Source: Lachnospiraceae bacterium P6B14 (GTDB lineage Bacteria; Bacillota; Clostridia; Lachnospirales; Lachnospiraceae). Taken from it: a stretch of 64,000 bases of DNA. The stretch spans positions 124,001 to 188,000 of the forward strand of contig JHWZ01000001.1 of the NCBI GenBank assembly GCA_000687695.1, given 5' to 3'. The translations under genes and the position numbers were made by a program. Positions within the stretch are counted from its first letter, which is position 1, and each line of letters starts with the position of its first letter. Shown one piece after another: positions 29,045 to 45,667 of the stretch. Under the pieces are notes generated by a model. That model was given only the letters and a program-made list of their open reading frames with translations. It searched no databases and was not told the origin of the DNA.

Positions 29045-29068
29045 ACTGTCCTCCAATCCATCATTGCA

Positions 29069-30388: not shown

Positions 30389-30423
30389 ATTTCTCCATCA
30401 GCCTATACTACATAGATGCATAT

Positions 30424-31323: not shown

Positions 31324-31363
31324 AGCTCCACCATATTCTTTCAAAACATCCTTTGCAACATCG

Positions 31364-31392
31364 ATTGTAGACAGTTTTACGCTGTTTGTCAA
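31364..31392 (-). promoter_or_regulatory. Sigma-A promoter of LRR-VWA-MoxR operon
   Basis: Minus strand TTGACA (31387-31392), 17 nt, TACAAT (31364-31369). It starts just behind the terminator of the gene upstream and shows that the LRR gene must start at 31323. Confidence 0.9.
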
Positions 31393-31397
31393 GCAAG

Positions 31398-31425
31398 AAA
31401 AAAGCCCCGGCCACAGGGCTTTTTT
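31398..31425 (-). terminator. Intrinsic terminator of the 630-residue secreted protein gene
   Basis: AAAAAAGCCC (31398-31407) and GGGCTTTTTT (31416-31425) with an 8-nt loop, 35 nt after the stop codon. The U-tract is in the minus-strand direction. Confidence 0.93.
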
Positions 31426-31459
31426 CTTTAGATCAACCACCATTTATGAAAATGTTTTA

Positions 31460-33352
31460 TTATGAGTTAGCAAGGTCCTTGATATCTCCGAGCTTCGCAA
31501 CCCCCTCTTCGTTTACACTGACTTGTACCAGATAGTAGGATGGAACGTTATTCGGACCGGGTACTGTTCCCTCGCAGATAAAGCTGTACTTGGTCCCTCT
31601 GATCTTCTCCGTTCCGAGGAGCGCAAGCGCTTTATACTCTACTCCGACATAACCCTCAAGCGCTTTGTTTAAGATTTCTCCTTCACCTTTAGCTATCACC
31701 GGTGTCTCTGCTTCAGCCCAACCGAGTGTAGGATCGGTTCCGTATCCATCGATATCTGTGTCCATTGCCTCTGTCACAGATGCGTCTCCGATGAGATTTG
31801 CTCTGATATCAAGCACTGAATAGGTTGTCTTTGCACCGGGCATGGCTTTTGTCTTTCTGCAAAATACTTTATAGTCCTGACCGGCTTCGCTTTCCTTCTT
31901 TCCGATCCATGCGACCGGTGTGTAGGTTACATCCTTAGACTCTTTGGTTGTTGCCTTGGTAACAATAGCCTTCAGTGCTTCATCTACTACCGGCGAGTCC
32001 GGAGCTTCCCAAGCATTTGAACTTACACTTGAATCGCTACGATTGATGCTGTGATCCTCGATCTTTGTTTTTATGACTTCATTTCCGTCATAGGAAATCG
32101 TGACCTCGTCGCCGATGTTGATCTTACTCAGGAAGTCCTCTGATATTGCCGTGGTTGCCCACTGCACATAGGTTGAGTTCTTTTTTATGTTCCATGTCTT
32201 CCAGGTCAGCCCGCCTGTAGCATTCGCGGTCTTGAAGCTGAACTTCGACAGGTCAAGCTCTATGTCCTCTGCTGTCGAGTTTGCAAAAACAGCTCCGAAA
32301 TTGTACCATTTTTTTCCATTTGACTCTCCCATGTAGCTAATCCATGCATCCTTGATCGTGAGACCGTCTCTGAGTATAATATGTATACCTCCACGACTCG
32401 CATCTTCATCATCTCCCATGTAGAGATGTACGGTTTTTTCATTGTCAAGTGTTACCGTTTTATCAAGTCCGACATTTACATATATGAAGCTGTACTTTGT
32501 TGCGGTATCATTTGTAAGTGACTTTCTTTCGCAAATGATGCAATAATTCATTCCCGCAACAACCTGTGTCGCCACCTTTGCTATCGGATTAAATGCATAT
32601 CCGGGAAACGCCGCTGTGATTTTGTCCATATTGTTTTCGATAGCGGCAAGCTCAGCTGCATCAAACTTCGGATCACACTCCGCAAACCCACCGGAAACTC
32701 CCTCTGATGCAGCAGGATAAGCATCAATCATCGTCTGAAATTCCTTTGTGATGCCTACTTCACCATCCATTTTTTCCTGTATCTCAACGATGCTGTAGAA
32801 TGTGGAAGTATTCGGAATCGGTGACGATTCTTTTGTAAGAACCCTCCAGGTCGTCCCCTCGTCGGTAAAGATATATGCGAGTGTAGCAACCGGAGTGTAT
32901 GCCGGAGCGCCGTCAAGTTTGTTTACCTCATCAAACAGCTTCTTCAGTCCGGACTGAACGGTCGGATCCTTTGCCGTGATCCACTCATTCTCCACAAGAC
33001 TTTCACTTACCGTCACCTTACACTTCAGCGTGTATTTTTTCTTGTTCTTTGCGGTAACTACTGCCTTGATGGTTGCACTTCCCGCCTTAAGAGCTGTCAC
33101 AACACCCTTCTTTGAAACCTTGGCAACCTTTTTTGCTGAGGTTGACCACTTGGTTGACTTGATCTTTACCTTGTTTGCTTTTACCTTAAGCTTTGCTGTC
33201 TTTCCCACCTCGAGGCTGAGCTTCTTTTTTGAGATCGTCGGTTTTTTTGTTGCCGCATCCGACTTAACAATCGGACTTACGGTAAATGCCATGGCCACCG
33301 CCATACCTACTGCTGCAATTCTTTTTACTGTTTTTCTTGTATCCTTGTTCAT
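31460..33352 (-). CDS. Secreted protein with Big2 domain and four cystatin-like modules
   Basis: 630 residues: signal peptide (1-34), a Lys-rich Big2 domain (about 36-115), then four repeats of one module (about 125-205, 225-305, 450-520 and 545-625) around a distinct beta-rich segment (about 310-440). Each module has a helix, a strand reading YTPVA or FNPIA, a hairpin, then a strand ending in Cys or Lys, and a second hairpin. In module 2 the first hairpin is exactly QVVAG (263-267, in ATQVVAGMNYCIICE), the signature of cystatin protease inhibitors; other modules keep the pattern but not the motif. Cystatin-like fold is inference. It has its own LytTR-type promoter and terminator. Confidence 0.8.
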   Translation of the reverse strand: MNKDTRKTVKRIAAVGMAVAMAFTVSPIVKSDAATKKPTISKKKLSLEVGKTAKLKVKANKVKIKSTKWSTSAKKVAKVSKKGVVTALKAGSATIKAVVTAKNKKKYTLKCKVTVSESLVENEWITAKDPTVQSGLKKLFDEVNKLDGAPAYTPVATLAYIFTDEGTTWRVLTKESSPIPNTSTFYSIVEIQEKMDGEVGITKEFQTMIDAYPAASEGVSGGFAECDPKFDAAELAAIENNMDKITAAFPGYAFNPIAKVATQVVAGMNYCIICERKSLTNDTATKYSFIYVNVGLDKTVTLDNEKTVHLYMGDDEDASRGGIHIILRDGLTIKDAWISYMGESNGKKWYNFGAVFANSTAEDIELDLSKFSFKTANATGGLTWKTWNIKKNSTYVQWATTAISEDFLSKINIGDEVTISYDGNEVIKTKIEDHSINRSDSSVSSNAWEAPDSPVVDEALKAIVTKATTKESKDVTYTPVAWIGKKESEAGQDYKVFCRKTKAMPGAKTTYSVLDIRANLIGDASVTEAMDTDIDGYGTDPTLGWAEAETPVIAKGEGEILNKALEGYVGVEYKALALLGTEKIRGTKYSFICEGTVPGPNNVPSYYLVQVSVNEEGVAKLGDIKDLANS

Positions 33353-33398
33353 GATTAGTTCCTCCTTTGTTATTCAATATTCTTATTTCGGTTTCTTT

Positions 33399-33421
33399 CA
33401 AAGACTGTCTGTTTGTCTTTG
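33399..33421 (-). other. 5'-UTR hairpin of the 630-residue protein mRNA
   Basis: CAAAGAC (33399-33405) and GTCTTTG (33415-33421) form a 7-bp stem. It starts about 9 nt after the -10 box, close to the mRNA 5' end. The same stem occurs at the same place in front of the 335-residue protein gene. A 5' stabiliser is the likely role. Confidence 0.65.
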
Positions 33422-33429
33422 TTGAACTC

Positions 33430-33458
33430 ACTATACCATGTAAATTCACTCGTTTCAA
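33430..33458 (-). promoter_or_regulatory. LytTR-controlled promoter A
   Basis: Minus strand TTGAAA (33453-33458), 17 nt, TATAGT (33430-33435), 10 nt downstream of the operator repeats. It drives the 630-residue secreted protein gene. Confidence 0.88.
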
Positions 33459-33468
33459 CAGATCCGCC

Positions 33469-33499
33469 ACGAGCGGTAGTTATCCGGGAACGAGCGGTA
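33469..33499 (-). promoter_or_regulatory. LytTR direct-repeat operator A
   Basis: Plus strand ACGAGCGGTA at 33469-33478 and again, identical, at 33490-33499, 21 bp apart (two helix turns). On the minus strand the units read TACCGCTCGT, close to the LytTR half-site consensus. It ends 10 nt before the -35 box and abuts the DUF3021 stop codon. Confidence 0.85.
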
Positions 33500-33997
33500 T
33501 CAAACGTGGTTTTCGGCTTCTATATCATGTATCTTTTGGGCTCTGAGCATCTTATCCTGCAGCTCGTTTAGCTCCTTCACCTGCTTTTTATAGATAGAGT
33601 ACATGATAACCCATATGATAAAGAAACCTATCAGCTGACAACCAACCATGATCAGAAATCCTATCGGTTCTCCGCTGCTCCATCCGAGGAACAACGACAG
33701 CGGAACGAAAGATCCGACCGTAACCAGACAGTGTGCAGCTGTCGCGATCGAAAGCGGCCAGCTCTCTATATCGTAAAACACCATAGTGCCGAATACAAGT
33801 GCTCCGTAGAGTCCTGACAGCAGGGATTGGATTAAAAATGCAAAGATCACATCTCCTTCAGTAAAAGTCAGGAGTTTATCAGATACGAGGACCAGCTCTC
33901 CGGCGCCGAGGCTTCCGGTCAGCATAGCTATGCCGTCGCCGACTAAAATCCCTAAAGAAAATCCGAGATCCGCTTTTTTCAGTATCTTCTTCAGCAT
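33500..33997 (-). CDS. DUF3021 membrane protein A (LytTR partner)
   Basis: 165 residues with four membrane segments (about 12-32, 50-75, 85-105 and 112-138) and a charged helical C-terminal tail in the cytoplasm (KKQVKELNELQDKMLRAQ). DUF3021 proteins are encoded next to LytTR regulators. In the related streptococcal HdrRM and BrsRM systems the membrane partner holds the regulator inactive. AGGAGGG precedes the ATG at 33997, which overlaps the LytTR gene by 7 nt, so translation is coupled and a fixed ratio is likely. A longer frame to 34060 would lie within the LytTR gene. Confidence 0.88.
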   Translation of the reverse strand: MLKKILKKADLGFSLGILVGDGIAMLTGSLGAGELVLVSDKLLTFTEGDVIFAFLIQSLLSGLYGALVFGTMVFYDIESWPLSIATAAHCLVTVGSFVPLSLFLGWSSGEPIGFLIMVGCQLIGFFIIWVIMYSIYKKQVKELNELQDKMLRAQKIHDIEAENHV

Positions 33998-34461
33998 AGA
34001 TATCCCTCCTCTCCTGACAGTTTCTCTCTGATAAGAGGTATGTACCTTCTGGACGCCCACGTTTCATTTCCGTCAGCAAACTCGATACGAAGCGTGCCCG
34101 CGACAGTAAAATCATACTTGACAACCTTCGTCAGATTTACTATCTCAAATCTCGACACCCGTAGGAACATCCTATCATTCAGGAGACTTTCCATGTTTTG
34201 CATGGACTGCCTCGCTCTGTATGTTTCCTTTGCGGTGACGATGCGGACATTTTTCGCATCCGATGTCACATAGATTATCTCGCTCTCGTCAATCACGCAC
34301 GATCTGTCATACTCATCGAGGACAGTCAGCTGCTGGGAGTCGGATGGTTTTATCCTCCTCACCAGCTCGCTGATATCCTCGTCTTTTTCACTCGCTCGTA
34401 TCAGAACATCGATATAATCTATGGATTCTTCCACCTTAAATCGAAGTCGAACTCTTTTCAT
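33991..34461 (-). CDS. LytTR-domain transcription regulator A
   Basis: 156 residues: about 50 N-terminal residues of unknown fold and a LytTR DNA-binding domain (about 57-148, with FLRVSRFEIVNLTKV and ASRRYIPLIREKL). There is no receiver domain, so control must come from a partner, here the DUF3021 protein. LytTR proteins bind paired direct repeats two helix turns apart, as found at 33469-33499, 35614-35644 and 43292-43322. It starts 14 nt after the 335-residue protein gene, so promoter B also expresses it (probable positive feedback). Confidence 0.92.
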   Translation of the reverse strand: MKRVRLRFKVEESIDYIDVLIRASEKDEDISELVRRIKPSDSQQLTVLDEYDRSCVIDESEIIYVTSDAKNVRIVTAKETYRARQSMQNMESLLNDRMFLRVSRFEIVNLTKVVKYDFTVAGTLRIEFADGNETWASRRYIPLIREKLSGEEGYLC

Positions 34462-34475
34462 TAGGTATCGCCTTT

Positions 34476-35483
34476 TTATACTGTATACACATTTACGACA
34501 CTGTCCTTATCAATGGAAACCGTTCCATCAAGACCAACTGTTGCAGTGATAAAGAAGTAAGTCGGATTCGCACTCGGAGTTACAGCTTTCTTCTCACATG
34601 CGATGAGGAAGCTCTGTCCTGCAACAACCTTTGTTGCGATCTGTGCAAGCGGTGTGATGCTCACTCCGTCAAGACCACTTGTAAGCTGCGATGCGAGGTC
34701 ATTCAGTTTCGGTGACAGTGAGCTGTCAAGTACCGGTGATGCACAGAGACTCCAGCCACCGGCTGTTCCTGCATCTAGGTCACCGAGCATGGTTGTGTAC
34801 TGTCTTGTGATGGCAACAGATGCATCAAGATACTCCGTGATCTCAAGGATCGTATAGTAGGATTTGCCTCCCGGCATATTGTCTGTTTCCTTAGCAAATA
34901 CTCTCCACGTCGTCCCCTCGGCTGTCATCTTGGTTGCAAATGTAGCGATCGAAGTATAAGTAGTTCCGTTATCTGCTTTATTAATAATGTCAAATTTTTC
35001 CTGAACACCTTCCTGGATCGTCGGATCAGTAGCAGTTACCCATACATCCTGTTCAGGCTCTTCACGCACAGGAGTATCCGGTACATATTTAGCGGTAAAT
35101 TTCTGTCCGTTGATCACGCACTTAAGTTTCTTTCCCTTGAAAGTGATGCTTCCTTTTATGGTCTTGGTTTTTTCGTTTCCAAGATACTTACCTTTAACAT
35201 TGAAGCTGACTGTAGATTTTAACTTCTTTGCGAAGTGCTTTCCAGTATCAAATGATTTATTTTTATCTGACCATACTATTCCGATCTTTACTTTATTATT
35301 CTTTGCTTTTTTAACATCGATCATCCAGACTGCCTTACCTTTGTTGTAAGCATAGCTGAAGGTTCCGTACTTTATGGATACCTTAGCCTCTGATCTTCCT
35401 GCCGGTGCTGCCACCACGATCATCGCTGCCGCAAGGGCAATTGCTGTTGCCTTTTTCATTGTTCTTTTTACTCTTTCTTTCAT
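34476..35483 (-). CDS. Secreted protein with two cystatin-like modules
   Basis: 335 residues: signal peptide (about 1-33), a beta-rich domain (about 34-130) and two modules related to those of the 630-residue protein (about 147-230 and 250-330). Module 1 has YTSIATFATKMTAEGTTW; module 2 has ITPLAQIATKVVAGQSF, with KVVAG at 285-289 in place of QVVAG. The match to module 1 of the larger protein (EGTTWRV, and TAxDPTxQ before it) shows common descent. AGGAGGAAA precedes the ATG. Promoter B and the shared 5' hairpin precede it. A secreted protease-inhibitor role is inference. Confidence 0.8.
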   Translation of the reverse strand: MKERVKRTMKKATAIALAAAMIVVAAPAGRSEAKVSIKYGTFSYAYNKGKAVWMIDVKKAKNNKVKIGIVWSDKNKSFDTGKHFAKKLKSTVSFNVKGKYLGNEKTKTIKGSITFKGKKLKCVINGQKFTAKYVPDTPVREEPEQDVWVTATDPTIQEGVQEKFDIINKADNGTTYTSIATFATKMTAEGTTWRVFAKETDNMPGGKSYYTILEITEYLDASVAITRQYTTMLGDLDAGTAGGWSLCASPVLDSSLSPKLNDLASQLTSGLDGVSITPLAQIATKVVAGQSFLIACEKKAVTPSANPTYFFITATVGLDGTVSIDKDSVVNVYTV

Positions 35484-35546
35484 AGTTGTTTCCTCCTTTT
35501 TTTGTTTACTATTTTGTTTGCTTTATTTTTAGCTTCTTATCTATGT

Positions 35547-35566
35547 CAAAGACTGTTTTGTCTTTG
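35547..35566 (-). other. 5'-UTR hairpin of the 335-residue protein mRNA
   Basis: CAAAGAC (35547-35553), six-base loop, GTCTTTG (35560-35566). Stem and position match the hairpin at 33399-33421. Confidence 0.65.
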
Positions 35567-35574
35567 TTGTGCAC

Positions 35575-35603
35575 ACTATACCACGCACAAATACCGTTTT
35601 CAA
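35575..35603 (-). promoter_or_regulatory. LytTR-controlled promoter B
   Basis: Minus strand TTGAAA (35598-35603), 17 nt, TATAGT (35575-35580), with the same boxes and spacing as promoter A. It drives the 335-residue protein gene and the LytTR/DUF3021 pair A. Confidence 0.88.
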
Positions 35604-35613
35604 TAAATCCGCC

Positions 35614-35644
35614 ACGAACGGTAGTCAAAAAGGAACGAGTGGTA
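35614..35644 (-). promoter_or_regulatory. LytTR direct-repeat operator B
   Basis: Plus strand ACGAACGGTA (35614-35623) and ACGAGTGGTA (35635-35644), 21 bp apart and 10 nt from the -35 box. The first unit read on the minus strand contains ACCGTTCGT, a full match to the published LytTR half-site consensus [TA][AC][CA]GTTN[AG][TG]. Confidence 0.88.
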
Positions 35645-35660
35645 ATCCTATTTGTTTTAT

Positions 35661-38156
35661 CTACATAACCTGGATCACACGATCCGGTTTATGTTTTTCC
35701 AAATACTTTTCCATCGATTTCTTCCCCACCACACAACGGCAGTTATATATACCCGAAAGTCTTTCTTTTTCCTGTCTTATACGCTCCGAATCATAGCCCC
35801 AGATAAGAGCGGACGGGATGCCTGCTTCCTTATCGGGAACAAACTGCTTCTCGGCAGGGATATACTTTTTAAGTATCTTTTCAAGCTCACCGTACTTGAC
35901 AGGTTTGCTTACATAGTCCGAGAATCCCTTTGCAAGATAACTCTCCCTGGCACCCATGATGGCATCAGCGGTGAGCGCGATAACCGGTGTACCTTTCAAA
36001 AGATCTCTCTCATTCATCACGTTCAGCGTATCCTCACCTGTCATCTCCGGCATCATCTGATCGAGCAGGATAACATCATACTTTGCAGTCTCCACCTTCT
36101 CGATACAGTCCTCACCGGAGTCCGAAAGCACGACTTTCATTTTTGTATCCTTTAACATGCCAGCCATGACATCGAGATTCATCTCATTATCATCTACTAC
36201 GAGAACAAGCGCCTCCGGAGCAAAAAGAGTGACCTCATCCGTTTCCATGTTATTCAGGAACTCATCGACTGCTTTTGAAAAATCTCCTATCGGATCATGG
36301 CGCACCACCTTCTGTGGCACGGTAAGTGTAAACACACTCCCTTTTCCATAAATACTGTTAAAAGAAATACGTCCATCCATCATGACCAAAAGGCGCTTTG
36401 TTATATGCAGCCCCAATCCGGTTCCTTCGATATTCCTATTAATCTTTTCATCCAAACGGTAAAAGCTCTTGAAGACTTTATCCTTATCTTCATTTTTGAT
36501 ACCTATCCCCGTATCCGAAACACTTACTATAAGATCTATCCATCCATTATCTTTCTTTCTGTATGTAACCTGTATGTCAACATGACCCTTTTTTGTATAT
36601 TTTATTGCATTATTAACTATGTTTAACATGATCTGACGGATCCTGATCTCATCACCATAAAGATTCGATGGTATTTCCTCATCGACTGAAAGATTAAAAT
36701 CCAGCCCCTTCTTTTCAGCTCTTGGTCTGGTCATGTTCAAAACATCATTCAGTATAGATGCCAGATCATACTCTGCAGGAACAATCTCAAAATTTCCCGA
36801 CTCAATCTTACTTAGATCAAGTATGTCATTAATGATGGAAAGCAAGGTATCTCCCGCACTCTTGATCTCGAGCGCATGCTTCTTCGTGCCGGTCTCTCTG
36901 GTCTCACGGATAATCATCTCATCCATGCCGAGAATACCGTTTAACGGGGTACGTATCTCATGTGACATATTTGCAAGAAAGTCGTCCTTCACCCGACTGA
37001 CATGCATTGCTTCATTAGCCTCAACCCGGATACCGATAAGCTGTTTTATAGTATGTATGATCGCACATATCATAAAAGCAAATAACCCAAGCGCCATAAA
37101 CAATCCGGAGAAAACTCCGTTATGAGCAAACTGATATGCACCAATCTGTATCAGCGCAGATATTGCCAATAGCACAAAACCAATCGCCACATATCTATAT
37201 GTATGAATTTTGTGATTTCTCACATCCTGAATGAGTGTAATAAACATAACTAATATACTCAGGATGGCACACAGGGCAGATGGAACGAAGCTTCTCGTAA
37301 GAGGAACAACTCCGATCACAAACAAGGAAACACAGATAACGAAATTGACAATCTCTATAGCACCCGCAAGTCTGATCAGCTTATTATATCTGTTGCTTTG
37401 CAGGGAATTAACAAACACCAAAAACGGAAGCGGCATTATCATGACCATTAAAAACGGGATGTCGGACATCACAGACATGTTCCTAGTGTATAACTGCCTA
37501 AAGATTGAATTGGACAGAACCCAGCATGCACCCAGGATTACTCCAAGCGATAAGTGTTCCATCTCAAGGTATTTTTTGTGAATATACTTATATGATACAG
37601 ATGCTATCAAACAGATCAGCCCTATAATTAATATAGTCAATCCAACAAAAAACTCTACTCCAAACTCCTTAAACAAACTCGTAAGAATACCTAGCCTTGT
37701 TCCGATGTAAACTCCGTAAACCATACCGGCATTATACTCATAATGAACACGAAGTATTTTTCCTGCATCTTCTGGATATACAGATGCGTAAACATATCCC
37801 TCCGCAGACTGATCACCAAAAAGTGAATAGTCTTCCGTCTCAATCTTTTCTCTGAGCTCGTCTCCGATATATATTTCCATGTCCATACCACGGAAGCATA
37901 ATACCGAATAATCCCTATTAAACTCATCTTTCTCCGGAAGTGTTGTTTCGAGCATTATTTCACCGTCTGTAGTCCCCGGTACAGTAAAAGGAACTCTGCT
38001 ACCATCCTCACGTATCTCAAACCACTTATCAGAGGGAAGAACATCACAGATATTTCCATTCACCGGCGCATTCGCCGGGAGCACAAACTCTCCGATGAAT
38101 ATGTATCCAAATACCAATATAAGTATTATAGAAAGAATATATCTAACAGCTTTCAA
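35661..38156 (-). CDS. Hybrid histidine kinase with C-terminal receiver
   Basis: 831 residues: an N-terminal membrane helix, an extracellular beta-rich sensor (about 30-160), seven or so membrane segments (about 165-372, 7TMR-DISM-like layout), HisKA with FLANMSHEIRTPLNG (H399), HATPase with N, G1 and G2 boxes (DTGIGI, GTGLGLHI) and a receiver with the phospho-acceptor in VILLDQMMPE (D699). After the receiver comes a short tail of unknown role. The start is TTG with GGAGGGAG upstream. It is the last gene of the operon ATPase-permeases-RR-HPt-kinase and should pass phosphate to the HPt protein encoded before it. Confidence 0.92.
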   Translation of the reverse strand: MKAVRYILSIILILVFGYIFIGEFVLPANAPVNGNICDVLPSDKWFEIREDGSRVPFTVPGTTDGEIMLETTLPEKDEFNRDYSVLCFRGMDMEIYIGDELREKIETEDYSLFGDQSAEGYVYASVYPEDAGKILRVHYEYNAGMVYGVYIGTRLGILTSLFKEFGVEFFVGLTILIIGLICLIASVSYKYIHKKYLEMEHLSLGVILGACWVLSNSIFRQLYTRNMSVMSDIPFLMVMIMPLPFLVFVNSLQSNRYNKLIRLAGAIEIVNFVICVSLFVIGVVPLTRSFVPSALCAILSILVMFITLIQDVRNHKIHTYRYVAIGFVLLAISALIQIGAYQFAHNGVFSGLFMALGLFAFMICAIIHTIKQLIGIRVEANEAMHVSRVKDDFLANMSHEIRTPLNGILGMDEMIIRETRETGTKKHALEIKSAGDTLLSIINDILDLSKIESGNFEIVPAEYDLASILNDVLNMTRPRAEKKGLDFNLSVDEEIPSNLYGDEIRIRQIMLNIVNNAIKYTKKGHVDIQVTYRKKDNGWIDLIVSVSDTGIGIKNEDKDKVFKSFYRLDEKINRNIEGTGLGLHITKRLLVMMDGRISFNSIYGKGSVFTLTVPQKVVRHDPIGDFSKAVDEFLNNMETDEVTLFAPEALVLVVDDNEMNLDVMAGMLKDTKMKVVLSDSGEDCIEKVETAKYDVILLDQMMPEMTGEDTLNVMNERDLLKGTPVIALTADAIMGARESYLAKGFSDYVSKPVKYGELEKILKKYIPAEKQFVPDKEAGIPSALIWGYDSERIRQEKERLSGIYNCRCVVGKKSMEKYLEKHKPDRVIQVM

Positions 38157-38196
38157 TATGCTCTCCCTCCTTTCCCTATTTCTGTTTTATATTTAG

Positions 38197-38799
38197 TTAT
38201 TCAATGGATGGAATAATTTCTTTTATCGCATCTGACGCCTCATCGTACATGAAGTCTTCCACATATCCCTTAGCAGTTTTCAGTATCTCTTTTTGAGTAG
38301 TCCTGAATGGATATCCGCCGAGTATGTTTATAAGATCTTTTGATCTGTCATCATCAAAATCATCAAGAGCCTCCAAAAGCTCATCTGCGACTTTTTTTGC
38401 CTGCTCACCCGATATCTCGTCTGCTGCATAGAAGTCGCCTATTTCTCCGATGGGCGCAAGTTTTTTTACAAGGTTTCCATACTCCATGACAACAGCCGGG
38501 GTCTCCTCTTTTACAAACGCGTAGTTGCCCTCTCTGGCAGCGTTCTCCAACGCCTCAAACATCTTACTCAGCTCCATGGTACCAATCATCTTTGCATTGC
38601 TTTTTATCGCGTGTACGATGATCATATAGTTATCATAATCTTCATCTACCAAGCACCGGTCTATCTTTACAGAGTTTTTATCAAACCCCTTATAAAACCT
38701 TTGTAATGCTGATATATATTTGTCCTGACCACCTGTATACTCCATACCTTCTTTAGTATCAAGACCTATATCATCAAGCCATCTGAAATCGTAATCCAT
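38197..38799 (-). CDS. HPt phosphotransfer protein
   Basis: 200 residues. An HPt helical bundle (about 20-115) carries the phosphorylatable His in IIVHAIKSNAKMIG (H63). A second helical part (about 120-200) is unassigned. It would shuttle phosphate between the hybrid kinase and the response regulator encoded next to it. It starts directly at the stop codon of the response-regulator gene, with AGGAGGA inside the last codons of that gene. Confidence 0.9.
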   Translation of the reverse strand: MDYDFRWLDDIGLDTKEGMEYTGGQDKYISALQRFYKGFDKNSVKIDRCLVDEDYDNYMIIVHAIKSNAKMIGTMELSKMFEALENAAREGNYAFVKEETPAVVMEYGNLVKKLAPIGEIGDFYAADEISGEQAKKVADELLEALDDFDDDRSKDLINILGGYPFRTTQKEILKTAKGYVEDFMYDEASDAIKEIIPSIE

Positions 38800-39618
38800 T
38801 TAGTCCTCCTGTTCAAAAACATCTATGATCTTTCCGACAAGTTCCGACTTTTTTGAGGGCTTGATAACATAGCCCTGAGGTTTTAACTCGGTAAGAGTTC
38901 TAATAACTGTATTTTTCTCCGTCATGCCCGTCAGGAAAACTACAGGGATATCCACATATCTCAGATCATCTCTGAGTCTGCGAAAAACTGACGGACCATC
39001 CTCCTCAGGCATCATATAATCAAGCAGGATCAGATCCGGAATATGCTTTGAAAGGTATCTGAATGCCATCTCACCTGATTTTACAGGCGTCACATCATAG
39101 AATTCCCGTAATTGTTCTTTAATATGGACGAGCTGCTCGGTATCATCATCGACAAGAAGAATGGATTTGCGTCTGTCATTCTTGCTCGCATTCTCATTTT
39201 CATACTCGCGGAACATCGACATCCTTTTTTCCTTGTTTTCTTCGAGCTGTTCCTCGATACGTATCAGCATCTCATAAAGAGAGAGCAGAGGGACGGGTCT
39301 TGATAAGAAGTAAACCTTTTCAAGAACTGAATGCTTTTTGAAGTACTTCTCATCCTCTTCATTTGCAACCACGATGACAGTGCAGTTTGTACCTCTTACC
39401 GCATCTTTCATCACGTTGTATGAAAGGATCGAATCCAGTGTTTCATTTCCCAGACATACTATGATGACATTCGGCACCTCAGCCAAAAGTACATCGTATA
39501 AAGCCACTTTGTTGGCATTGCATTTGACTGTGAGATATCCCCTGTCGGATTCCAGATGTTCGCACAAGTCAGTAGCGACTCTCCTGTTTTGTCCGGTTAC
39601 CAAGATCTGAAGCTTCAT
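38800..39618 (-). CDS. Two-receiver response regulator (one degenerate)
   Basis: 272 residues with two receiver-like domains and no DNA-binding or enzymatic output. The first (about 1-115) lacks the phospho-acceptor Asp: the strand reads NVIIVCLGN. The second (about 150-270) is complete, with LLVDDD (about 155), LILLDYMMP (D200), a Thr in VFLTG and a Lys in VIKPSKK. Output is probably by protein contact within the relay. The frame is open to a GTG at 39627, but AGAGAGG lies 8 nt before the ATG at 39618, which is preferred. The gene follows the exporter permease by about 20 nt. Confidence 0.88.
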   Translation of the reverse strand: MKLQILVTGQNRRVATDLCEHLESDRGYLTVKCNANKVALYDVLLAEVPNVIIVCLGNETLDSILSYNVMKDAVRGTNCTVIVVANEEDEKYFKKHSVLEKVYFLSRPVPLLSLYEMLIRIEEQLEENKEKRMSMFREYENENASKNDRRKSILLVDDDTEQLVHIKEQLREFYDVTPVKSGEMAFRYLSKHIPDLILLDYMMPEEDGPSVFRRLRDDLRYVDIPVVFLTGMTEKNTVIRTLTELKPQGYVIKPSKKSELVGKIIDVFEQED

Positions 39619-39640
39619 ACCCATCACCTCTCTCTGTTTT

Positions 39641-40813
39641 TTATTTTTTTACCTTAACTGTCTTATGTCTTCCCGACATGATGATCGTCAGTATCAGGAA
39701 GAAAAGGATGAATCCTCCCTGCACTGCGAAGCATATAAATACATCTCCGTGTGTGCCTCTCTGATCTCCGCATAAAAGATCATTCGCACGCTCGTACCAG
39801 TATCCGGGCAGTATCTTTGTAACTGTCTGCACACCTTCACCCAGCATCGACTGCGGCATAAAACCGCCGCATAAAAATGCCATGCCGAGGCCCATCACCT
39901 GAGCCACCATACTCATCACCACATCAGATGGTTTGAAGGTGGAAATAAATATCGTGAACATCGCCACAAACAAAGCAAATATGAACGAGTTCAGTACCGC
40001 CAGCCAACTGTTTGTGCCCGTATACATACCGCCGTACAGGAGTGCTCCTCCCGCCAGGAAGATAGCCCATACAACTAAGATAAGCACCGCACTTCCCATA
40101 AATACCTGGGTAACATAAGACGATACTGTTGTACGTGAACACTGGATACGCTTTCTCTGTTCTTCACCGTTCATCGTGATGAGGATCGGTCCGAGCATAC
40201 TCATGATGACCGCGATCAGTATGTACATCAGCAGCCTGAAGAACCATGCGAACTTCGTCGTGAAGTTTTCATCAAACATCTCATCCTCAGGATCCTGAAC
40301 AACCTCGATGTTGACCTCTTCACGCTCCGCGGATTTCTTCACCGCAGTCATCAGATCGTCACCCATCGCAACACTCATACGGGTATTTCTGATGTATTCC
40401 TGCAGATATACATTCATCATCGCGGTCGCATAGCCGTCACGCAGGTGGAACTCCTCAAATATCTCTTTCTTCAGATCCTCTTTGTCAGTTGATCCGAGAA
40501 GCTCAGCATACCCCTTCGGGATCACCAGCGAGTAATCAATCAGTGAATAGTACATCGCATCCATCAGTTCCTGATTATTCAGTTTTCTGTCTGTGATATG
40601 ATGCTTTTTTTCAAGCTCTGCAATAAGTGCTTTACTTGCCTCCGTCTGATCCTCATCCCTGACATACAGACTCAGGGAGGTATCTTCGAAGTCTACTTTT
40701 TCTTCACTTGCATTTACCATCGGAAAACAGATGGCAAAAAATATGACTGTATAAAGGATTCCGATCCCGATCTTGGAACGGGTCACTTTAAAGAATAATT
40801 TAAAGACTTGCAT
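39641..40813 (-). CDS. ABC-2 type exporter permease (second subunit)
   Basis: 390 residues: one N-terminal membrane helix, a large outside loop (about 40-180) and a cluster of five or six helices at the C-terminus (about 185-380), the layout of ABC-2 membrane proteins. It pairs with the permease encoded just upstream, whose gene it overlaps by 14 nt, and with the ATPase. GGAGGA precedes the ATG. Substrate is unknown; peptide or antimicrobial export or resistance is common for LytTR-linked exporters. Confidence 0.9.
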   Translation of the reverse strand: MQVFKLFFKVTRSKIGIGILYTVIFFAICFPMVNASEEKVDFEDTSLSLYVRDEDQTEASKALIAELEKKHHITDRKLNNQELMDAMYYSLIDYSLVIPKGYAELLGSTDKEDLKKEIFEEFHLRDGYATAMMNVYLQEYIRNTRMSVAMGDDLMTAVKKSAEREEVNIEVVQDPEDEMFDENFTTKFAWFFRLLMYILIAVIMSMLGPILITMNGEEQRKRIQCSRTTVSSYVTQVFMGSAVLILVVWAIFLAGGALLYGGMYTGTNSWLAVLNSFIFALFVAMFTIFISTFKPSDVVMSMVAQVMGLGMAFLCGGFMPQSMLGEGVQTVTKILPGYWYERANDLLCGDQRGTHGDVFICFAVQGGFILFFLILTIIMSGRHKTVKVKK

Positions 40814-42212
40814 ATTTTTTCCTCCTTGTCATCAGTATTCCAAGGACGATAAATACAACTGTAAATCCGCCCATCGTCAGGAGCTTTATAAAGTAACGGC
40901 TGAGATCCGAATCCATGTTCAGATAGTACATGGCATCAGTTACGACCGCTACCGGATTTAAATCATTTACTATAGGTATCTGCACAGAGAATATAGCGCG
41001 GATACTGTCGATCATCAGTCCGCTCATGAAGCAGAGGGACATATTGACAGCCATCATAAGACCTGTCTTTCCACCCTCACTGAGCTTACCGATCGCACCG
41101 ACAAAGAATCCGAGTGATACACCCATCACTGCACCGCAGATTCCCGTGAGATATACGAGTAAAAGCTTGTCACCGAAATCTATCTGAAGAACAAACTTCA
41201 GGAACGTTACTGAAAGTAAAACACAGCAGCTGTGTGTGATATAGGTTCCGATCAGCTCAGGCAAAACCACCTTCCACTTCGGTGTCCCTGCGCACGACCT
41301 TCTCATACCGATCGAGGAGAGGTTTGCCTGGTTTCCGATAGCGATGTGCATCGCTGCCAGTGAACCGAAGATCGATACCATGGCGATCAGGTTGTACATA
41401 TACATCGCGAGCGGATCCTTGTTTCCGTCAGTAAGAGGTGTCTCTTTGATGGACGCCCCGTTCATCACATCACTTATGCCGTCGAAAGCGTCACTCTTTT
41501 TGGCGTCGGTATTTCCCACCCAAAGATCCTTCGCCATCTTTTTCATATTGATGAACATCTCCACATAGCTCTTCAGCGTGCTCTGCTCCGAACCATTTTT
41601 CTTGATCTTTACAGAGATGTCAGTATCCTGGATGTAGGTGTTCATCATGGTATCCATCTGCTTGTTTATGTCTTCTGCAGAGAAAGAAGAAGTATCGTAG
41701 GTCGTTTTGACCTTGTCACCGATCTGTGTGAAATCATTCATCTTATCCCAGTCGTTACCAAAGACGCCTGACATATAGTCAGAGTCTTCGGCCTCCACAG
41801 GAGTCTGACCCGGGAGAGGATTGATAACGATAACACCTACCACGTCGCCGTTATTCAGGAGCTTGTAGGCTTCCTCCTCCGAGCAGTAGGTCGGAGAAAG
41901 CATGTTACGGGCTTTTTCCATGCCGTTCTCGGTTTTACCGTCAGACGTCGAGGTATCTTCTTCTGCGACTTCTTCCGCATCCTCTTCGGTTTCACTTTTT
42001 TCACCGTAAAACATATGGAACATCTTATCACTTGTGTTTTCTACTACGGCAACCTTGATACCCATCGCCGCTCCGTCTTTTCCGAGATTACCGAACGCGA
42101 ACTTGTAAAAGAGGCCCAGGAAGATAGGGAATATCACCATCCAGATGAGCACTTCCTTCGCACGGAAGTTGCGTTTGATCTCGTAGAGTACATTTCTGAA
42201 AAACATACGCAA
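40800..42212 (-). CDS. ABC-2 type exporter permease (first subunit)
   Basis: 470 residues with the same layout: an N-terminal helix (about 22-42), a large, acidic extracytoplasmic domain (about 45-270, with EEDAEEVAEEDTSTSDG) and six C-terminal helices (about 275-460). AAAGGAGG precedes the ATG. It follows the ATPase gene by 11 nt. The large outside domain may bind the substrate or an external factor. Confidence 0.9.
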   Translation of the reverse strand: MRMFFRNVLYEIKRNFRAKEVLIWMVIFPIFLGLFYKFAFGNLGKDGAAMGIKVAVVENTSDKMFHMFYGEKSETEEDAEEVAEEDTSTSDGKTENGMEKARNMLSPTYCSEEEAYKLLNNGDVVGVIVINPLPGQTPVEAEDSDYMSGVFGNDWDKMNDFTQIGDKVKTTYDTSSFSAEDINKQMDTMMNTYIQDTDISVKIKKNGSEQSTLKSYVEMFINMKKMAKDLWVGNTDAKKSDAFDGISDVMNGASIKETPLTDGNKDPLAMYMYNLIAMVSIFGSLAAMHIAIGNQANLSSIGMRRSCAGTPKWKVVLPELIGTYITHSCCVLLSVTFLKFVLQIDFGDKLLLVYLTGICGAVMGVSLGFFVGAIGKLSEGGKTGLMMAVNMSLCFMSGLMIDSIRAIFSVQIPIVNDLNPVAVVTDAMYYLNMDSDLSRYFIKLLTMGGFTVVFIVLGILMTRRKKYASL

Positions 42213-42223
42213 ACCTCCTTTGC

Positions 42224-43198
42224 TTACTCTTCGTCGTCAGTTGTCTCTCTCTCATCTTTATCTCTGAGCTCCTTACCCGTGATAGTCAGGAACACATCAT
42301 TCAATGTCGGCAGCTCTGAGTATATTCTTCCGAAGCTTACGTCTGCCTTTTTCAGCTCATCCATCACATATCCTAAGTTGTGACGACCGCCCTCGCAGGC
42401 GATGGCAAGCTTCTTATCCTTGAACGTAACATCTGATGCATTCGGGATAGCCTTCAACGCAGAGATGAGGGCCTCCGAAGCTGAATCCATCTCGATATAG
42501 ATGGTCTCTGTATTTTTGATCGAAGCCTTGAGTTCATCCTTCGTTCCCTCAGCGATCTTTTTGCCGTGATCCATGATGGCGATGCGTGAGCAAATCTGCT
42601 CAACCTCTTCCATATAGTGAGTGGTGTAGATGATCGTCGCACCCTGCTCATTCAGCTTGGTTATACCCTCGAGGATATGGTTTCTGCTCTGCGGGTCAAC
42701 CGCCACCGTCGGCTCGTCGAGGATGATGAGCTTCGGTTTGTGCGCGATACCGCAGGCGATATTCAGGCGACGCAGAAGTCCGCCGGAGAGCTTCTTCGGA
42801 CGGAACTTCGTGAAGTCCTTCAGTCCTACAAACTCGATCGCTTCATCCACGTACTGTTTACGAGTCGCCTTATCCTTGATGTAGAGACCGCAAAAGATGT
42901 CGATATTCTCATAGACATTCAACTCATCAAACACAGCCACGTTCTGAAGGATGACACCGATCTTCGATTTGATATCATATGCGGTAGGAGTCATCGGCTC
43001 GCCAAAGACCTCCACCGTTCCTTCATCGAATGCTAAAAGAGATAAAAGACAACTTATGGTCGTGGTCTTCCCGGATCCGTTCGGTCCGAGAAGTCCGAAG
43101 ACCTCACCCTCTTTTATCTCCAGATTCAGATGATCCAGAGCCCTCAGCTCTGCATAATTCTTTACCAGATTCTCGATCTTTACTACTGTTTTCCCCAT
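42224..43198 (-). CDS. ABC exporter ATPase
   Basis: 324 residues. Walker A GPNGSGKTT (about residue 38), Q-loop VILQN, signature LSGGLLRRLNIACG (about 140) and Walker B LIILDEPTVAVDP are all present, with the switch His in YTTHYMEE. The C-terminal 90 residues resemble the extension of CcmA/NodI-type drug-export ATPases. It powers the two ABC-2 permeases. It is the first gene of the exporter-phosphorelay operon, 55 nt from the -10 box of promoter C. Confidence 0.94.
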   Translation of the reverse strand: MGKTVVKIENLVKNYAELRALDHLNLEIKEGEVFGLLGPNGSGKTTTISCLLSLLAFDEGTVEVFGEPMTPTAYDIKSKIGVILQNVAVFDELNVYENIDIFCGLYIKDKATRKQYVDEAIEFVGLKDFTKFRPKKLSGGLLRRLNIACGIAHKPKLIILDEPTVAVDPQSRNHILEGITKLNEQGATIIYTTHYMEEVEQICSRIAIMDHGKKIAEGTKDELKASIKNTETIYIEMDSASEALISALKAIPNASDVTFKDKKLAIACEGGRHNLGYVMDELKKADVSFGRIYSELPTLNDVFLTITGKELRDKDERETTDDEE

Positions 43199-43252
43199 AA
43201 AAACCTCCGATCTCCGCTGTCAGTATGCAGCAGTCCTGTCTTCGTATTTTCG

Positions 43253-43281
43253 AGTATATTAAAATCGGCCTCAAAAGTAAA
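43253..43281 (-). promoter_or_regulatory. LytTR-controlled promoter C
   Basis: Minus strand TTTACT (43276-43281), 17 nt, TATACT (43253-43258), 10 nt from the operator repeats. It drives the exporter-phosphorelay operon. The weak -35 box fits a need for an activator. Confidence 0.82.
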
Positions 43282-43291
43282 TACTTTTGGG

Positions 43292-43322
43292 CCGAACGGT
43301 AGTTATGGATGTCCGAATGGTC
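43292..43322 (-). promoter_or_regulatory. LytTR direct-repeat operator C
   Basis: Plus strand CCGAACGGTA (43292-43301) and CCGAATGGTC (43313-43322), 21 bp apart. On the minus strand the first contains ACCGTTCGG, a full consensus match. The C-for-A change shared by both units sets it apart from operators A and B and may mark specificity for regulator B. Confidence 0.83.
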
Positions 43323-43347
43323 TTCATTCGGAATATTTTTATATACA

Positions 43348-43812
43348 TCAGTGGATTTCGATATCTTTTTCTCCATTCGTGGTGGCGTTGTGACTAACCT
43401 TCCACCTTTTCAGGTCTTCATCAAGCTCCTTTGCCTGCTTTTTCGATGTTGTATACATGATGATCCAGATCATGAAATATGCAACAAGCATGCAAGCTGT
43501 CATGATGTAAGTACCGATATCATTGAGCGGGAACCATCCCAGCGAGAACCCTATGGTAAACATGGTTCCGAACGTGATCAAGAAATGTGTAACCGTACAA
43601 CGCGTTACCGACCAGCTTTCCGCCTCATAAATCACGGAAAAGCCCATTGCCACAGCGCCCAGCACACCGCTGAGTATGATGTGTAAAGATATCATCATAG
43701 GTCCCCAACCGTTGTCGCTGTTCAGGAACAAGAATACCAATCCGACCAGCACTCCTACTGCAAAACCAACGAGGCCGAGAATGAGGCCCTTTTTGATCAA
43801 CGCTGTATTCAT
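43348..43812 (-). CDS. DUF3021 membrane protein B (LytTR partner)
   Basis: 154 residues with four membrane segments (about 8-30, 40-62, 72-95 and 102-125) and a charged cytoplasmic tail (KKQAKELDEDLKRWK). It is a paralogue of the DUF3021 protein at 33500. Its ATG overlaps the LytTR stop as ATGA, with AAAGGAGG upstream, giving coupled translation. It is expected to restrain LytTR regulator B at the membrane until a signal arrives. Confidence 0.88.
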   Translation of the reverse strand: MNTALIKKGLILGLVGFAVGVLVGLVFLFLNSDNGWGPMMISLHIILSGVLGAVAMGFSVIYEAESWSVTRCTVTHFLITFGTMFTIGFSLGWFPLNDIGTYIMTACMLVAYFMIWIIMYTTSKKQAKELDEDLKRWKVSHNATTNGEKDIEIH

Positions 43813-44294
43813 GACCTCACCTCCTTTGCCCTATCATGACTCAGGAGATCTCTGATAGCGCCCACATAGCGGCGCGCCACCCAGGTCTCGGTGTCATCTT
43901 CAAATACTACCTTTATGGTTCCTGTTACACTGAAATCAAAGCCTGAAGCTTTTTTCAGGTTGATTATCTCAAAACGGCTGATGCGGACGAAGCACTCCGG
44001 ATCGAGGACTTTTTCCAGATCCTGGAGTGTTGACCTCGACTCATAGCTGCCTGTCTTTGTATGCAGGATAACCTTGCGGCTCTCCGTATGCACACGAAAA
44101 ATATCCCACTGATTCAGCATCACGACAGACTCGCCGTCCATAGCTGTAATCTGTGGGTACTCGCTGTCGACATACTTCTCGATCGCATATATGAGGTTCT
44201 CCACGAGCTCAGATGTCTCGGCCGTCTGAATGACCACCCTGGGCTCGGTCCGTGTTGGATCTATCTCGACACGGATGTCAACTTTACCGTTCAT
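43809..44294 (-). CDS. LytTR-domain transcription regulator B
   Basis: 161 residues: an N-terminal domain (about 1-50, with RVEIDPTRTEPRVVIQT) and a LytTR domain (about 60-153, with FVRISRFEIINLKKA and VARRYVGAIRDLL). It is clearly paralogous to regulator A. A GTG at 44309 gives a longer frame, but AAGGGGAAA stands in front of the ATG at 44294, which is preferred. It follows the zinc-ribbon gene closely and lies directly upstream of the operon headed by operator C, its most likely target. Confidence 0.92.
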   Translation of the reverse strand: MNGKVDIRVEIDPTRTEPRVVIQTAETSELVENLIYAIEKYVDSEYPQITAMDGESVVMLNQWDIFRVHTESRKVILHTKTGSYESRSTLQDLEKVLDPECFVRISRFEIINLKKASGFDFSVTGTIKVVFEDDTETWVARRYVGAIRDLLSHDRAKEVRS

Positions 44295-44319
44295 GCGTTT
44301 CCCCTTCACGTCATCAGGT

Positions 44320-44748
44320 TTATTTTTTCTTCTTCTTTGTCGTATCCCCGTTCAAAAAATGCATCTTTTCTTTTTTTTCTACGGGAGCACCCTTTCGACT
44401 GCTATCTGATATCAAGTGTCTGCATTCACTGCAGTATTTACCACGAGCGATCGGTATGCCGCATCTGGAACATCTCTTACCCTCTGTCGTATGCTGCAGC
44501 ACCTGGATCCTGCCATCCATCAGAAGCTTTGAGACAACACTCTTGTCAAGGCCCGTAGCATAGGCTATCTCCATAATGTTACTCGGACCGCGCTTCTCCA
44601 AAAACTGTCTGACCTTTCCGAAGTCATCCAAAACGACATTTCCGCAGTCTACGCACTCATATTCTCCGCCACCCCGGAACTTAACTATGCCTCCGCACTT
44701 CTCGCACAGCACGGTTCCCGGGTCAAATTCAAGCTCTTCGTCTGACAT
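44320..44748 (-). CDS. Two-zinc-ribbon helix-turn-helix protein (YvyF-like)
   Basis: 142 residues: an N-terminal zinc ribbon (CEKCGG and CVDCGN), a helix-turn-helix-like middle (NIMEIAYATGLDKSVVSKLL), a second ribbon (CSRCGIPIARGKYCSEC) and a Lys-rich tail. The order resembles the flagellar-region protein YvyF/TIGR03826, but no flagellar genes are adjacent. It heads the operon with LytTR/DUF3021 pair B. DNA or RNA binding is likely; the exact role is unknown. GGGAGGAAG precedes the ATG. Confidence 0.8.
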   Translation of the reverse strand: MSDEELEFDPGTVLCEKCGGIVKFRGGGEYECVDCGNVVLDDFGKVRQFLEKRGPSNIMEIAYATGLDKSVVSKLLMDGRIQVLQHTTEGKRCSRCGIPIARGKYCSECRHLISDSSRKGAPVEKKEKMHFLNGDTTKKKKK

Positions 44749-44784
44749 AAGCTTCCTCCCTTCATGGATCCAACCCTAATCATC

Positions 44785-44813
44785 AATATAACAAAACCAG
44801 TTAAAAAAATCAA
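44785..44813 (-). promoter_or_regulatory. Promoter of zinc-ribbon/LytTR-B/DUF3021-B operon
   Basis: Minus strand TTGATT (44808-44813), 17 nt, TATATT (44785-44790). No LytTR repeat pair is seen upstream of it, so pair B seems not to activate itself. Confidence 0.72.
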
Positions 44814-44834
44814 CTGTTTATGAAAAATGCTTAG

Positions 44835-45653: not shown

Positions 45654-45667
45654 AGACTACCTCACAC

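What the first reader, a model, noticed from the sequence alone, without database searches (positions are those of the whole stretch)
33430..43322. Three promoters with identical LytTR operator architecture define a regulon
Upstream of the 630-residue secreted protein, the 335-residue secreted protein and the ABC exporter operon lie paired 10-bp repeats (33469/33490, 35614/35635, 43292/43313), always 21 bp apart, always 10 nt from a -35 box, followed by 17 nt and a -10 box. On the coding strand units read TACCGCTCGT, TACCGTTCGT, TACCACTCGT and TACCGTTCGG; two match the LytTR consensus in full. Two LytTR genes lie among them. Such geometry is unlikely by chance and links exporter, phosphorelay and secreted proteins into one circuit.
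Basis: partly seen in the sequence, partly recalled or inferred. Interest (0 to 1): 0.87.

Follow-up and report, generated by a model that had tools for sequence, protein, structure and literature searches.

The report
LytTR operators controlling secreted cystatin-like proteins
Three matching DNA switches in a bacterium with close relatives in the sheep rumen look like genuine binding-site pairs of a known but little-studied membrane-gated regulator family, and they probably turn on an exporter, a signalling relay and secreted proteins predicted to fold like protease inhibitors.

Summary
Three minus-strand promoters carry paired 10-bp boxes 21 bp apart, 10 nt before a -35, with 17 nt to the -10. 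The genome (2.69 Mb) holds exactly three ACCNNTCG pairs at this spacing, all here; reversed control 0. A relaxed pattern gives five, control one; the two extra sites precede a secreted paralogue and a 64-aa membrane protein. Seven species of the genus, this one included, carry such sites beside related regulators: 26 sites with promoters in 265 kb of chosen loci, controls 0.
This is the operator of LytTR Regulatory Systems (LRS; Zou 2018), so the kind is known. Departures: the box reads TC where sister systems read TT (51 of 56 boxes C here, 3 of 40 in sisters), and its regulators carry Ser-Arg-Phe where sisters carry mostly Ser-(Asn/Lys)-Ser; the regulon reaches secreted proteins in trans; one LytTR/DUF3021 pair has no operator of its own; LytTR/DUF3021 genes adjoin a phosphorelay without a recognised DNA-binding output. 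The main secreted family models as tandem cystatin folds. One site also occurs in a species without such a regulator. Binding, activation and protease inhibition are untested.

The parts
33469..33499 (-). Operator of P630: units 33490-33499 and 33469-33478
   Evidence: one of 3 exact pairs in the genome
33430..33458 (-). P630 promoter: -35 TTGAAA 33453-33458, -10 TATAGT 33430-33435, TG before the -10
35614..35644 (-). Operator of P335: units 35635-35644 and 35614-35623
35575..35603 (-). P335 promoter: -35 TTGAAA 35598-35603, -10 TATAGT 35575-35580, TG before the -10
43292..43322 (-). Operator of PABC: units 43313-43322 (GACCATTCGG) and 43292-43301
43253..43281 (-). PABC promoter: -35 TTTACT 43276-43281, -10 TATACT 43253-43258
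31460..33352 (-). 630-aa protein with signal-peptide-like start, Big_2 domain and cystatin-like repeats, behind P630
30424..31443 (-). 339-aa protein with BspA-type LRR, 16 nt downstream of the 630-aa gene, probably the same transcript
   Evidence: co-transcription inferred
34476..35483 (-). 335-aa protein with signal-peptide-like start; residues 146-335 model as two cystatin-like domains; first gene behind P335
33991..34461 (-). LytTR1, 156 aa, LytTR domain only, motif RVSRFEIVN
33500..34003 (-). DUF3021-1 membrane protein (first in-frame ATG used)
   Evidence: PF11457 E 7.3e-21
43809..44309 (-). LytTR2, 166 aa, motif RISRFEIIN
43348..43812 (-). DUF3021-2 membrane protein
   Evidence: PF11457 E 1.1e-25
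42224..43198 (-). ABC transporter ATPase, first gene behind PABC
   Evidence: function read from the sequence, no family scan run on it
39641..42212 (-). Two ABC permease-like genes (40800-42212, 39641-40813)
   Evidence: function read from the sequence, no family scan run on them
38800..39627 (-). Response regulator, one Pfam receiver (residues 156-267), no recognised output domain
   Evidence: low-confidence model
38197..38799 (-). Hpt-like protein (Pfam Hpt E 7.4e-4, below the curated cut-off)
35661..38156 (-). Hybrid histidine kinase with C-terminal receiver
44785..44813 (-). Promoter-like site (TTGATT-17-TATATT) before the Zn-ribbon/LytTR2/DUF3021-2 genes, without paired boxes
44320..44748 (-). 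142-aa zinc-ribbon-like protein, 10 nt upstream of LytTR2
   Evidence: name read from the sequence

Best explanation
The three sites are activator operators of two LytTR Regulatory Systems (LytTR1/DUF3021-1 and LytTR2/DUF3021-2). A LytTR pair binds the two boxes, two helical turns apart, and helps RNA polymerase at the adjoining promoter; the DUF3021 membrane protein holds the LytTR inactive until an unknown, probably envelope, signal. P335 makes the LytTR1 system self-amplifying and co-expresses a secreted protein; P630 drives a second secreted protein; PABC drives the exporter and, by read-through, the phosphorelay. Targets in trans are a 224-aa secreted paralogue and, less surely, a 64-aa membrane protein. 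Shown: sequence, geometry, rarity, conservation in relatives, gene content. Inferred: binding, activation, inhibition by DUF3021, which LytTR uses which site, read-through, and the role of the secreted proteins.
For: 3 exact pairs in 2.69 Mb, control 0; relaxed pattern 5, control 1, all 5 with a promoter at the expected spacing. 26 sites with promoters in 264,667 bases of loci from 7 species, reversed control 0, five Markov-1 replicates 0; 22 of 26 scored best at 10 nt to the -35, 25 of 26 at 17 nt to the -10. Genome holds 2 DUF3021 and 3 LytTR genes, both pairs here. LytTR-DUF3021 operons elsewhere in the order carry boxes of the same geometry before their own promoters: 20 of 30 loci read (counted). 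Published LRS have 9-bp repeats 11-13 bp apart, mostly 10 bp before -35, and HdrR binds them (PMC6193735). In G008 the 335-aa homologue is cut to 140 aa while operator, LytTR1 and DUF3021-1 stay.
Against: No binding or expression data. LytTR2's own operon has no boxes, against the LRS rule of autoregulation. A third LytTR (REC-LytTR) lies 2 kb from the contig-15 site and could use it. That site with its 64-aa gene is 99% identical in G061, which has no match to the LytTR profile A4. 16 of the 37 genus-wide pattern hits (control there 2) lie in 10 of the 32 genomes without SRF-type LytTR, so similar boxes serve other regulators or arise by chance. P335 and P630 are probably duplicates. A further paralogue on contig 5 has no such site in the fetched stretch.
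Confidence: 0.85

Rival explanations
1. Two separate LRS regulons that share an ancestral box: LytTR1 reads T-initial units (TACCGCTCGT) before secreted proteins, LytTR2 reads G-rich units (GACCGTTCGG) before the exporter and the 64-aa gene, with little cross-talk; so there are two circuits and not one.
For: Within this genome the two flavours differ at positions 1 and 10, in the inner spacer (TCC... against ACATC...) and in the sequence before -35 (GGCGGAT... against ...CAAAA...). Orthologous exporter promoters in G002 and G008 keep the G flavour, orthologous 335-aa promoters the T flavour.
Against: G009 and G015 have only LytTR2 among SRF-type regulators, yet have sites before both exporter or other genes and secreted proteins, and their sites mix the flavours; S. 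mutans LRS cross-regulate (PMC6193735).
Confidence: 0.35
2. The boxes bind the third LytTR protein, a receiver-LytTR response regulator on contig 15, or another factor, and not the DUF3021-linked LytTRs.
For: That protein is the only other LytTR in the genome and lies near one site; similar boxes occur in genomes without SRF-type LytTR.
Against: Four of the five sites lie far from it, three of them beside the two LytTR/DUF3021 pairs; the published LRS geometry fits, and the same geometry stands before LytTR-DUF3021 operons elsewhere.
Confidence: 0.08
3. Chance or mere promoter duplication without regulatory meaning.
For: P335 and P630 share 5'-UTR sequence.
Against: Genome-wide rarity, two trans sites with promoters at the expected spacing, 26 sites against 0 in controls, boxes kept while the inner spacer changes in the 64-aa gene's four copies.
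Confidence: 0.02

Closest known systems
LytTR Regulatory Systems (LRS), Zou et al. 2018, PMC6193735 (HdrRM, BrsRM, SMU_433/434; S. aureus LytTR/DUF3021 operon)
   Same: LytTR regulator gene directly before a membrane-protein gene (DUF3021 as in S. aureus); direct repeats 11-12 bp apart, about 10 bp before -35; ABC transporter genes linked.
   Different: Box YTCR instead of the YTTA seen in most of their tables; secreted protein is the first gene of the LytTR1 operon; LytTR2 operon without repeats; targets in trans are mostly secreted proteins; adjoining phosphorelay genes.
Ordinary LytTR-DUF3021 operons of the same genus and order (L166-L181, L187, L189)
   Same: Same operon order in most, same box spacing and promoter spacing.
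   Different: Boxes with T at the eighth position in 37 of 40; no secreted-protein regulon was looked for there; no RR/Hpt/HK genes seen in the 3-kb loci.
BlpS with BlpH/BlpR of Streptococcus gallolyticus, PMC8545106 (passages seen)
   Same: A LytTR-only protein encoded with a two-component system.
   Different: BlpS opposes a LytTR response regulator and has no membrane partner; here the phosphorelay has no recognised DNA-binding output.
Cystatin superfamily, including bacterial cystatins (PMC2784779, passages seen)
   Same: Predicted helix plus four-strand repeats; best solved-structure matches are phytocystatin, multicystatin, latexin and fetuin-B; QVVAG at the first hairpin in several repeats.
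   Different: No significant match to cystatin sequence profiles; QxVxG absent from 9 of 15 family proteins; activity unknown.

Membership tests
LytTR Regulatory System (LRS) | LytTR regulator gene directly upstream of a transmembrane-protein gene | tested here: met
   Two LytTR-DUF3021 pairs; that DUF3021 is a membrane protein is taken from PMC6193735 and the hydrophobic sequence
LytTR Regulatory System (LRS) | Regulator without receiver domain | tested here: met
   Pfam finds only LytTR above cut-off in both proteins
LytTR Regulatory System (LRS) | Direct repeats just upstream of the -35 of the LRS operon itself, LytTR1 system | tested here: met
   P335 precedes the 335-aa gene, LytTR1 and DUF3021-1
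LytTR Regulatory System (LRS) | Direct repeats just upstream of the -35 of the LRS operon itself, LytTR2 system | tested here: not met
   No boxes at 44785-44813; none directly before LytTR2 in the loci of G002, G008, G009, G011, G015. LytTR2/DUF3021-2 is therefore called LRS-like, not a full member
LytTR Regulatory System (LRS) | Membrane protein inhibits the regulator; regulator activates its own operon | not testable with these tools
   needs gene removals and reporters
LytTR Regulatory System (LRS) | Works apart from phosphosignalling | tested here: inconclusive
   RR, Hpt and hybrid kinase genes adjoin LytTR/DUF3021 here and in relatives; no function shown
Cystatin superfamily | Cystatin fold | tested here: inconclusive
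   Model pLDDT 85; Foldseek ranks 1-8 are cystatin-type chains, best E 1.3e-3, none at or below 0.001, query TM 0.30-0.47
Cystatin superfamily | QxVxG in the first hairpin | tested here: inconclusive
   QxVxG in 6 of 15 family proteins, QVVAG in 5 of 15; the 335-aa protein has KVVAG
Cystatin superfamily | Match to cystatin sequence profiles | tested here: not met
   Pfam Cystatin E 0.14 in 1 of 8 members; no cystatin among sequences of solved structures at E up to 10
Cystatin superfamily | Inhibits papain-like proteases | not testable with these tools
   needs purified protein

The most novel reading that the evidence does not exclude
A phosphorelay-gated LRS: a hybrid kinase, an Hpt protein and a response regulator without a DNA-binding output pass their signal to the DUF3021/LytTR pair, merging two sensory classes held to be separate, and the merged circuit switches on an exporter and secreted multi-cystatin proteins that block cysteine proteases in the animal gut. 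Operator and LytTR recognition loop changed together (TT boxes with S-N/K-S to TC boxes with S-R-F).
Probability: 0.25. Interest if true: 0.8.

Novelty: new variant of a known kind. Interest (0 to 1): 0.55.

Why it matters
Zou et al. (2018, abstract) state that the only characterised LRS were those of Streptococcus mutans; what LRS sense and control elsewhere is largely open. This locus offers a compact predicted regulon with five promoters, paralogous regulators, a natural shift of DNA specificity that can be tested by exchanging two residues, and a recurring link to a phosphorelay that could show how LRS are triggered. It also gives a predicted fold and a testable activity to a secreted family for which Pfam and NCBIfam found only a Big_2 domain above cut-off in the two window members.

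Tried and rejected
Pattern with 2 mismatches: equal to control, dropped. Rfam scan of 29000-46000 at E up to 0.1: no match. First alignment for the collection scan was too diverse; the second gave 2 loci. Profile comparison of the two halves of the response regulator: a first run aligned an overlapping tail by mistake; with trimmed ends probability 0.5%, E 0.12, so no sequence proof that the N-half is a receiver; the model has a (beta-alpha)5 pattern in both halves but mean pLDDT 61 from two sequences. Viral fold library: one cystatin-domain protein at rank 2 (E 0.021), no match at E 0.001 or below. Arg alone as cause of the changed box: G113 has S-R-H with TTTAT/TTTGT boxes, so Arg is not sufficient; one weak genus hit (G033, 21% identical) has S-R-N. 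Hit G009:C133 has no promoter at the spacing and was not counted. Boxes with TC also occur singly in 3 of 40 boxes of sister systems. A contig-15-type cassette moving between species was considered: the 64-aa gene with its operator is 99, 96 and 77% identical in G061, G002 and G015, and homology to G002 and G015 starts at or just before the operator; not pursued. Papers: LytTR with DUF3021 found 2 papers; LytTR or DUF3021 from 2019 on, 40 of 195 listed; LytTR with phosphorelay terms, 10 of 16 listed, none with such a system in title or start of abstract. Whether the coupling is in print elsewhere is open, since most subscription journals are not held.
Full report
WHAT IS THERE. On the minus strand three promoters carry two 10-bp boxes at period 21, then 10 nt, -35, 17 nt, -10: P630 (33499..33430), P335 (35644..35575) and PABC (43322..43253). 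Behind them lie a 630-aa protein with a signal-peptide-like start plus a 339-aa LRR protein; a 335-aa protein with a signal-peptide-like start followed by LytTR1 and DUF3021-1; and an ABC ATPase with two permease-like genes followed by a response regulator, an Hpt-like protein and a hybrid kinase, closely spaced. The second LytTR/DUF3021 pair lies just upstream of PABC. The exporter genes and signal peptides were recognised by reading the sequence; I ran no family scan on the exporter and no signal-peptide program.

CHANCE. In the whole 2,686,994-base genome (98% complete) ACCNNTCG pairs at period 21 occur exactly three times, the three named sites; reversed control 0. ACCRYTCRN{12,13}ACCRYTCR gives five, control one. 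The two new sites have promoters at the expected spacing: contig 2, TACCGCTCAT twice, 10, TTGAAA, 17, TATAGT, 106 nt before a 224-aa secreted paralogue; contig 15, GACCGTTCGG/GACCATTCAG, then TTGCAT-16-TATAAT (scored by the script as 9 nt, ATTGCA-17-TATAAT), before a 64-aa protein with two hydrophobic stretches. A further paralogue on contig 5 (336 aa) has no such site in the fetched 14 kb.

RELATIVES. Of 37 genus genomes searched (G000-G036), 8 hold the 335-aa family at E 1e-5; none of the 24 genomes of other families in that search does. 7 of these 8 also hold a DUF3021 gene, against 6 of 29 without the family (Fisher p 0.0011). LytTRs with the S-R-F motif are in 7 of 39 genus genomes: 11 of the 29 LytTR matches at E 1e-10, motif not read in 2 of the 29 by the script. 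The eighth family holder, G007, is 69% complete and has no LytTR match. In 264,667 bases of loci from these 7 species, 26 sites score at least 11 of 12 with a promoter-like -35/-10; reversed sequence 0, five Markov-1 replicates 0, 0, 0, 0, 0. The loci were chosen for the genes or for the pattern (4 of the 26 sites lie in loci picked with the pattern), so the density is not that of a genome. Positions 5 and 6 were not scored, yet are only G/A and T/C. The three sites of G009 have period 20. Behind the sites lie the 335-aa family, other proteins with signal-peptide-like or lipoprotein-like starts, exporter genes, the 64-aa gene and a zinc-ribbon gene; at a weaker score of 10 also an RR-Hpt-HK-LytTR1-DUF3021 cluster in G026. 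In G008 the 335-aa homologue is cut to 140 aa while operator, LytTR1 and DUF3021-1 remain. Against exclusivity: genus-wide the relaxed pattern has 37 hits in 16 of 39 genomes, control 4; 21 hits (control 2) are in the 7 species with S-R-F regulators and 16 (control 2) in 10 of the other 32. And the contig-15 site with its 64-aa gene is 99% identical in G061 (96% complete), which has no match to the LytTR profile.

WHAT KIND OF SYSTEM. Zou et al. 2018 (PMC6193735; I read the abstract, results sections 6 part 1, 7 and 9, and the discussion) define LRS: a LytTR regulator plus a membrane inhibitor, 9-bp direct repeats 11-13 bp apart mostly 10 bp before -35, with HdrR binding and autoactivation shown, ABC transporters linked to two S. 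mutans types, and a DUF3021 partner in S. aureus. P335 with LytTR1/DUF3021-1 meets the sequence criteria. LytTR2/DUF3021-2 does not: its genes follow a zinc-ribbon gene and a promoter without boxes, and no site stands directly before LytTR2 in the loci of five relatives. Of the 30 loci returned by an order-wide LytTR search (392 genomes, 105 with a match at E 1e-12), 20 have paired boxes of this geometry before a LytTR gene (counted); 10, the window's LytTR2 among them, do not at that threshold.

SPECIFICITY. Scored without favouring C or T at the eighth position, the loci of the 7 species give 28 sites with C in 51 of 56 boxes, reversed control 0; the 20 sister sites have C in 3 of 40. All 11 S-R-F regulators belong to the first group; of the 30 order-wide loci only the window's own has S-R-F, the rest mostly S-N-S, S-K-S or S-Q-S. 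G113 has S-R-H with TTTAT/TTTGT boxes, so Arg alone does not explain the change. The solved LytTR domain 3d6w aligns C-H-R-S to I-S-R-F here; H169 of AgrA makes sequence-specific contacts (PMC12482169, passages); that H169 corresponds to this Ser is my inference. This is a correlation within one related group, not a test.

PHOSPHORELAY. LytTR-DUF3021 genes adjoin RR-Hpt-HK genes in G009, G015 and G026 and in two other genera (G402; G279 with another order and Hpt 1.5 kb off), and adjoin the kinase in G019; in G012 a DUF3021 gene is followed by the kinase, its LytTR being on another contig; in G000 and G011 the exporter lies between. Against: G066, with a related LytTR-DUF3021 pair, shows none of these genes in 19 kb, and the sister LytTR-DUF3021 loci show none in about 3 kb apart from weak kinase-like hits. 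The window's response regulator has one Pfam receiver and no recognised output domain. I infer, without proof, that the LytTR pair is the output of this relay.

SECRETED FAMILY. The model of residues 146-335 (pLDDT 85, pTM 0.83, 8 sequences) has two helix-plus-four-strand domains. Foldseek ranks 1-8 against solved structures are phytocystatin, multicystatin, latexin and fetuin-B chains; best E 1.3e-3, none at 0.001 or below, query TM 0.30-0.47, so the fold call is good but not certain. QxVxG occurs in 6 of 15 family proteins, QVVAG in 5; in the 335-aa model the turn after the first strand of domain 2 is V-A-G of KVVAG. Sequence profiles do not see a cystatin. Bacterial cystatins have been proposed as defence against host proteolysis (PMC2784779, passages). 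The two named relatives are RUG381 (uncultured Clostridiales) and RGIG6945 (Eubacterium sp., title says sheep rumen). A gut setting is therefore likely, and protection from cysteine proteases is a guess.

VERDICT. The class is known; this is a variant with an enlarged, mostly secreted regulon, a shifted box and a recurring phosphorelay partner.

Noticed in passing
L094:5754-7931 (G011:C17), same as L136:5754-7931: The LytTR1 orthologue (68% identical) is fused in frame to a long domain that looks GH3-like (auxin-responsive-promoter family, recalled); no DUF3021 gene next to it. A true fusion or an assembly effect.
   Followed up: no
L094:1213-3030, L096 behind 8759, L135:8125-9846: A second family of secreted proteins (573-611 aa) stands behind the same operators in G011 and G015, and lies beside the P335-type promoter in RUG381 without a site of its own at the threshold.
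   Followed up: partly
L104:7307-7681 (G000:C15), L137, L138, L141: Operator, promoter and 64-aa gene are 99, 96 and 77% identical in G061, G002 and G015; flanks are 82-84% identical in G061 and unrelated in G002 and G015, with homology starting at or just before the operator. Perhaps a small mobile or exchanged cassette.
   Followed up: partly
L092 (G009:C45) 4971, 11546, 16559: All three operators with promoters in this species have period 20 instead of 21, and it has only a LytTR2-type S-R-F regulator.
   Followed up: no
43312-43332: The distal unit of PABC lies inside a 9-bp inverted repeat followed by T on the plus strand, terminator-like for a strand with no evident gene.
   Followed up: no
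33352-33430 and 35483-35575: The 5' leaders of the 630-aa and 335-aa genes share CAACAAAGACAAA...CAGTCTTTGA, a possible small hairpin; Rfam has no match.
   Followed up: partly
L098:5017 and 5066 (G026:C23): Two operators face away from each other; one drives a homologue of the zinc-ribbon gene that precedes LytTR2 in the window.
   Followed up: no
L162, L191 (G402): A phosphorelay-linked LytTR with motif S-Q-S has boxes ACCGAATAG twice at period 21, a third box type.
   Followed up: no
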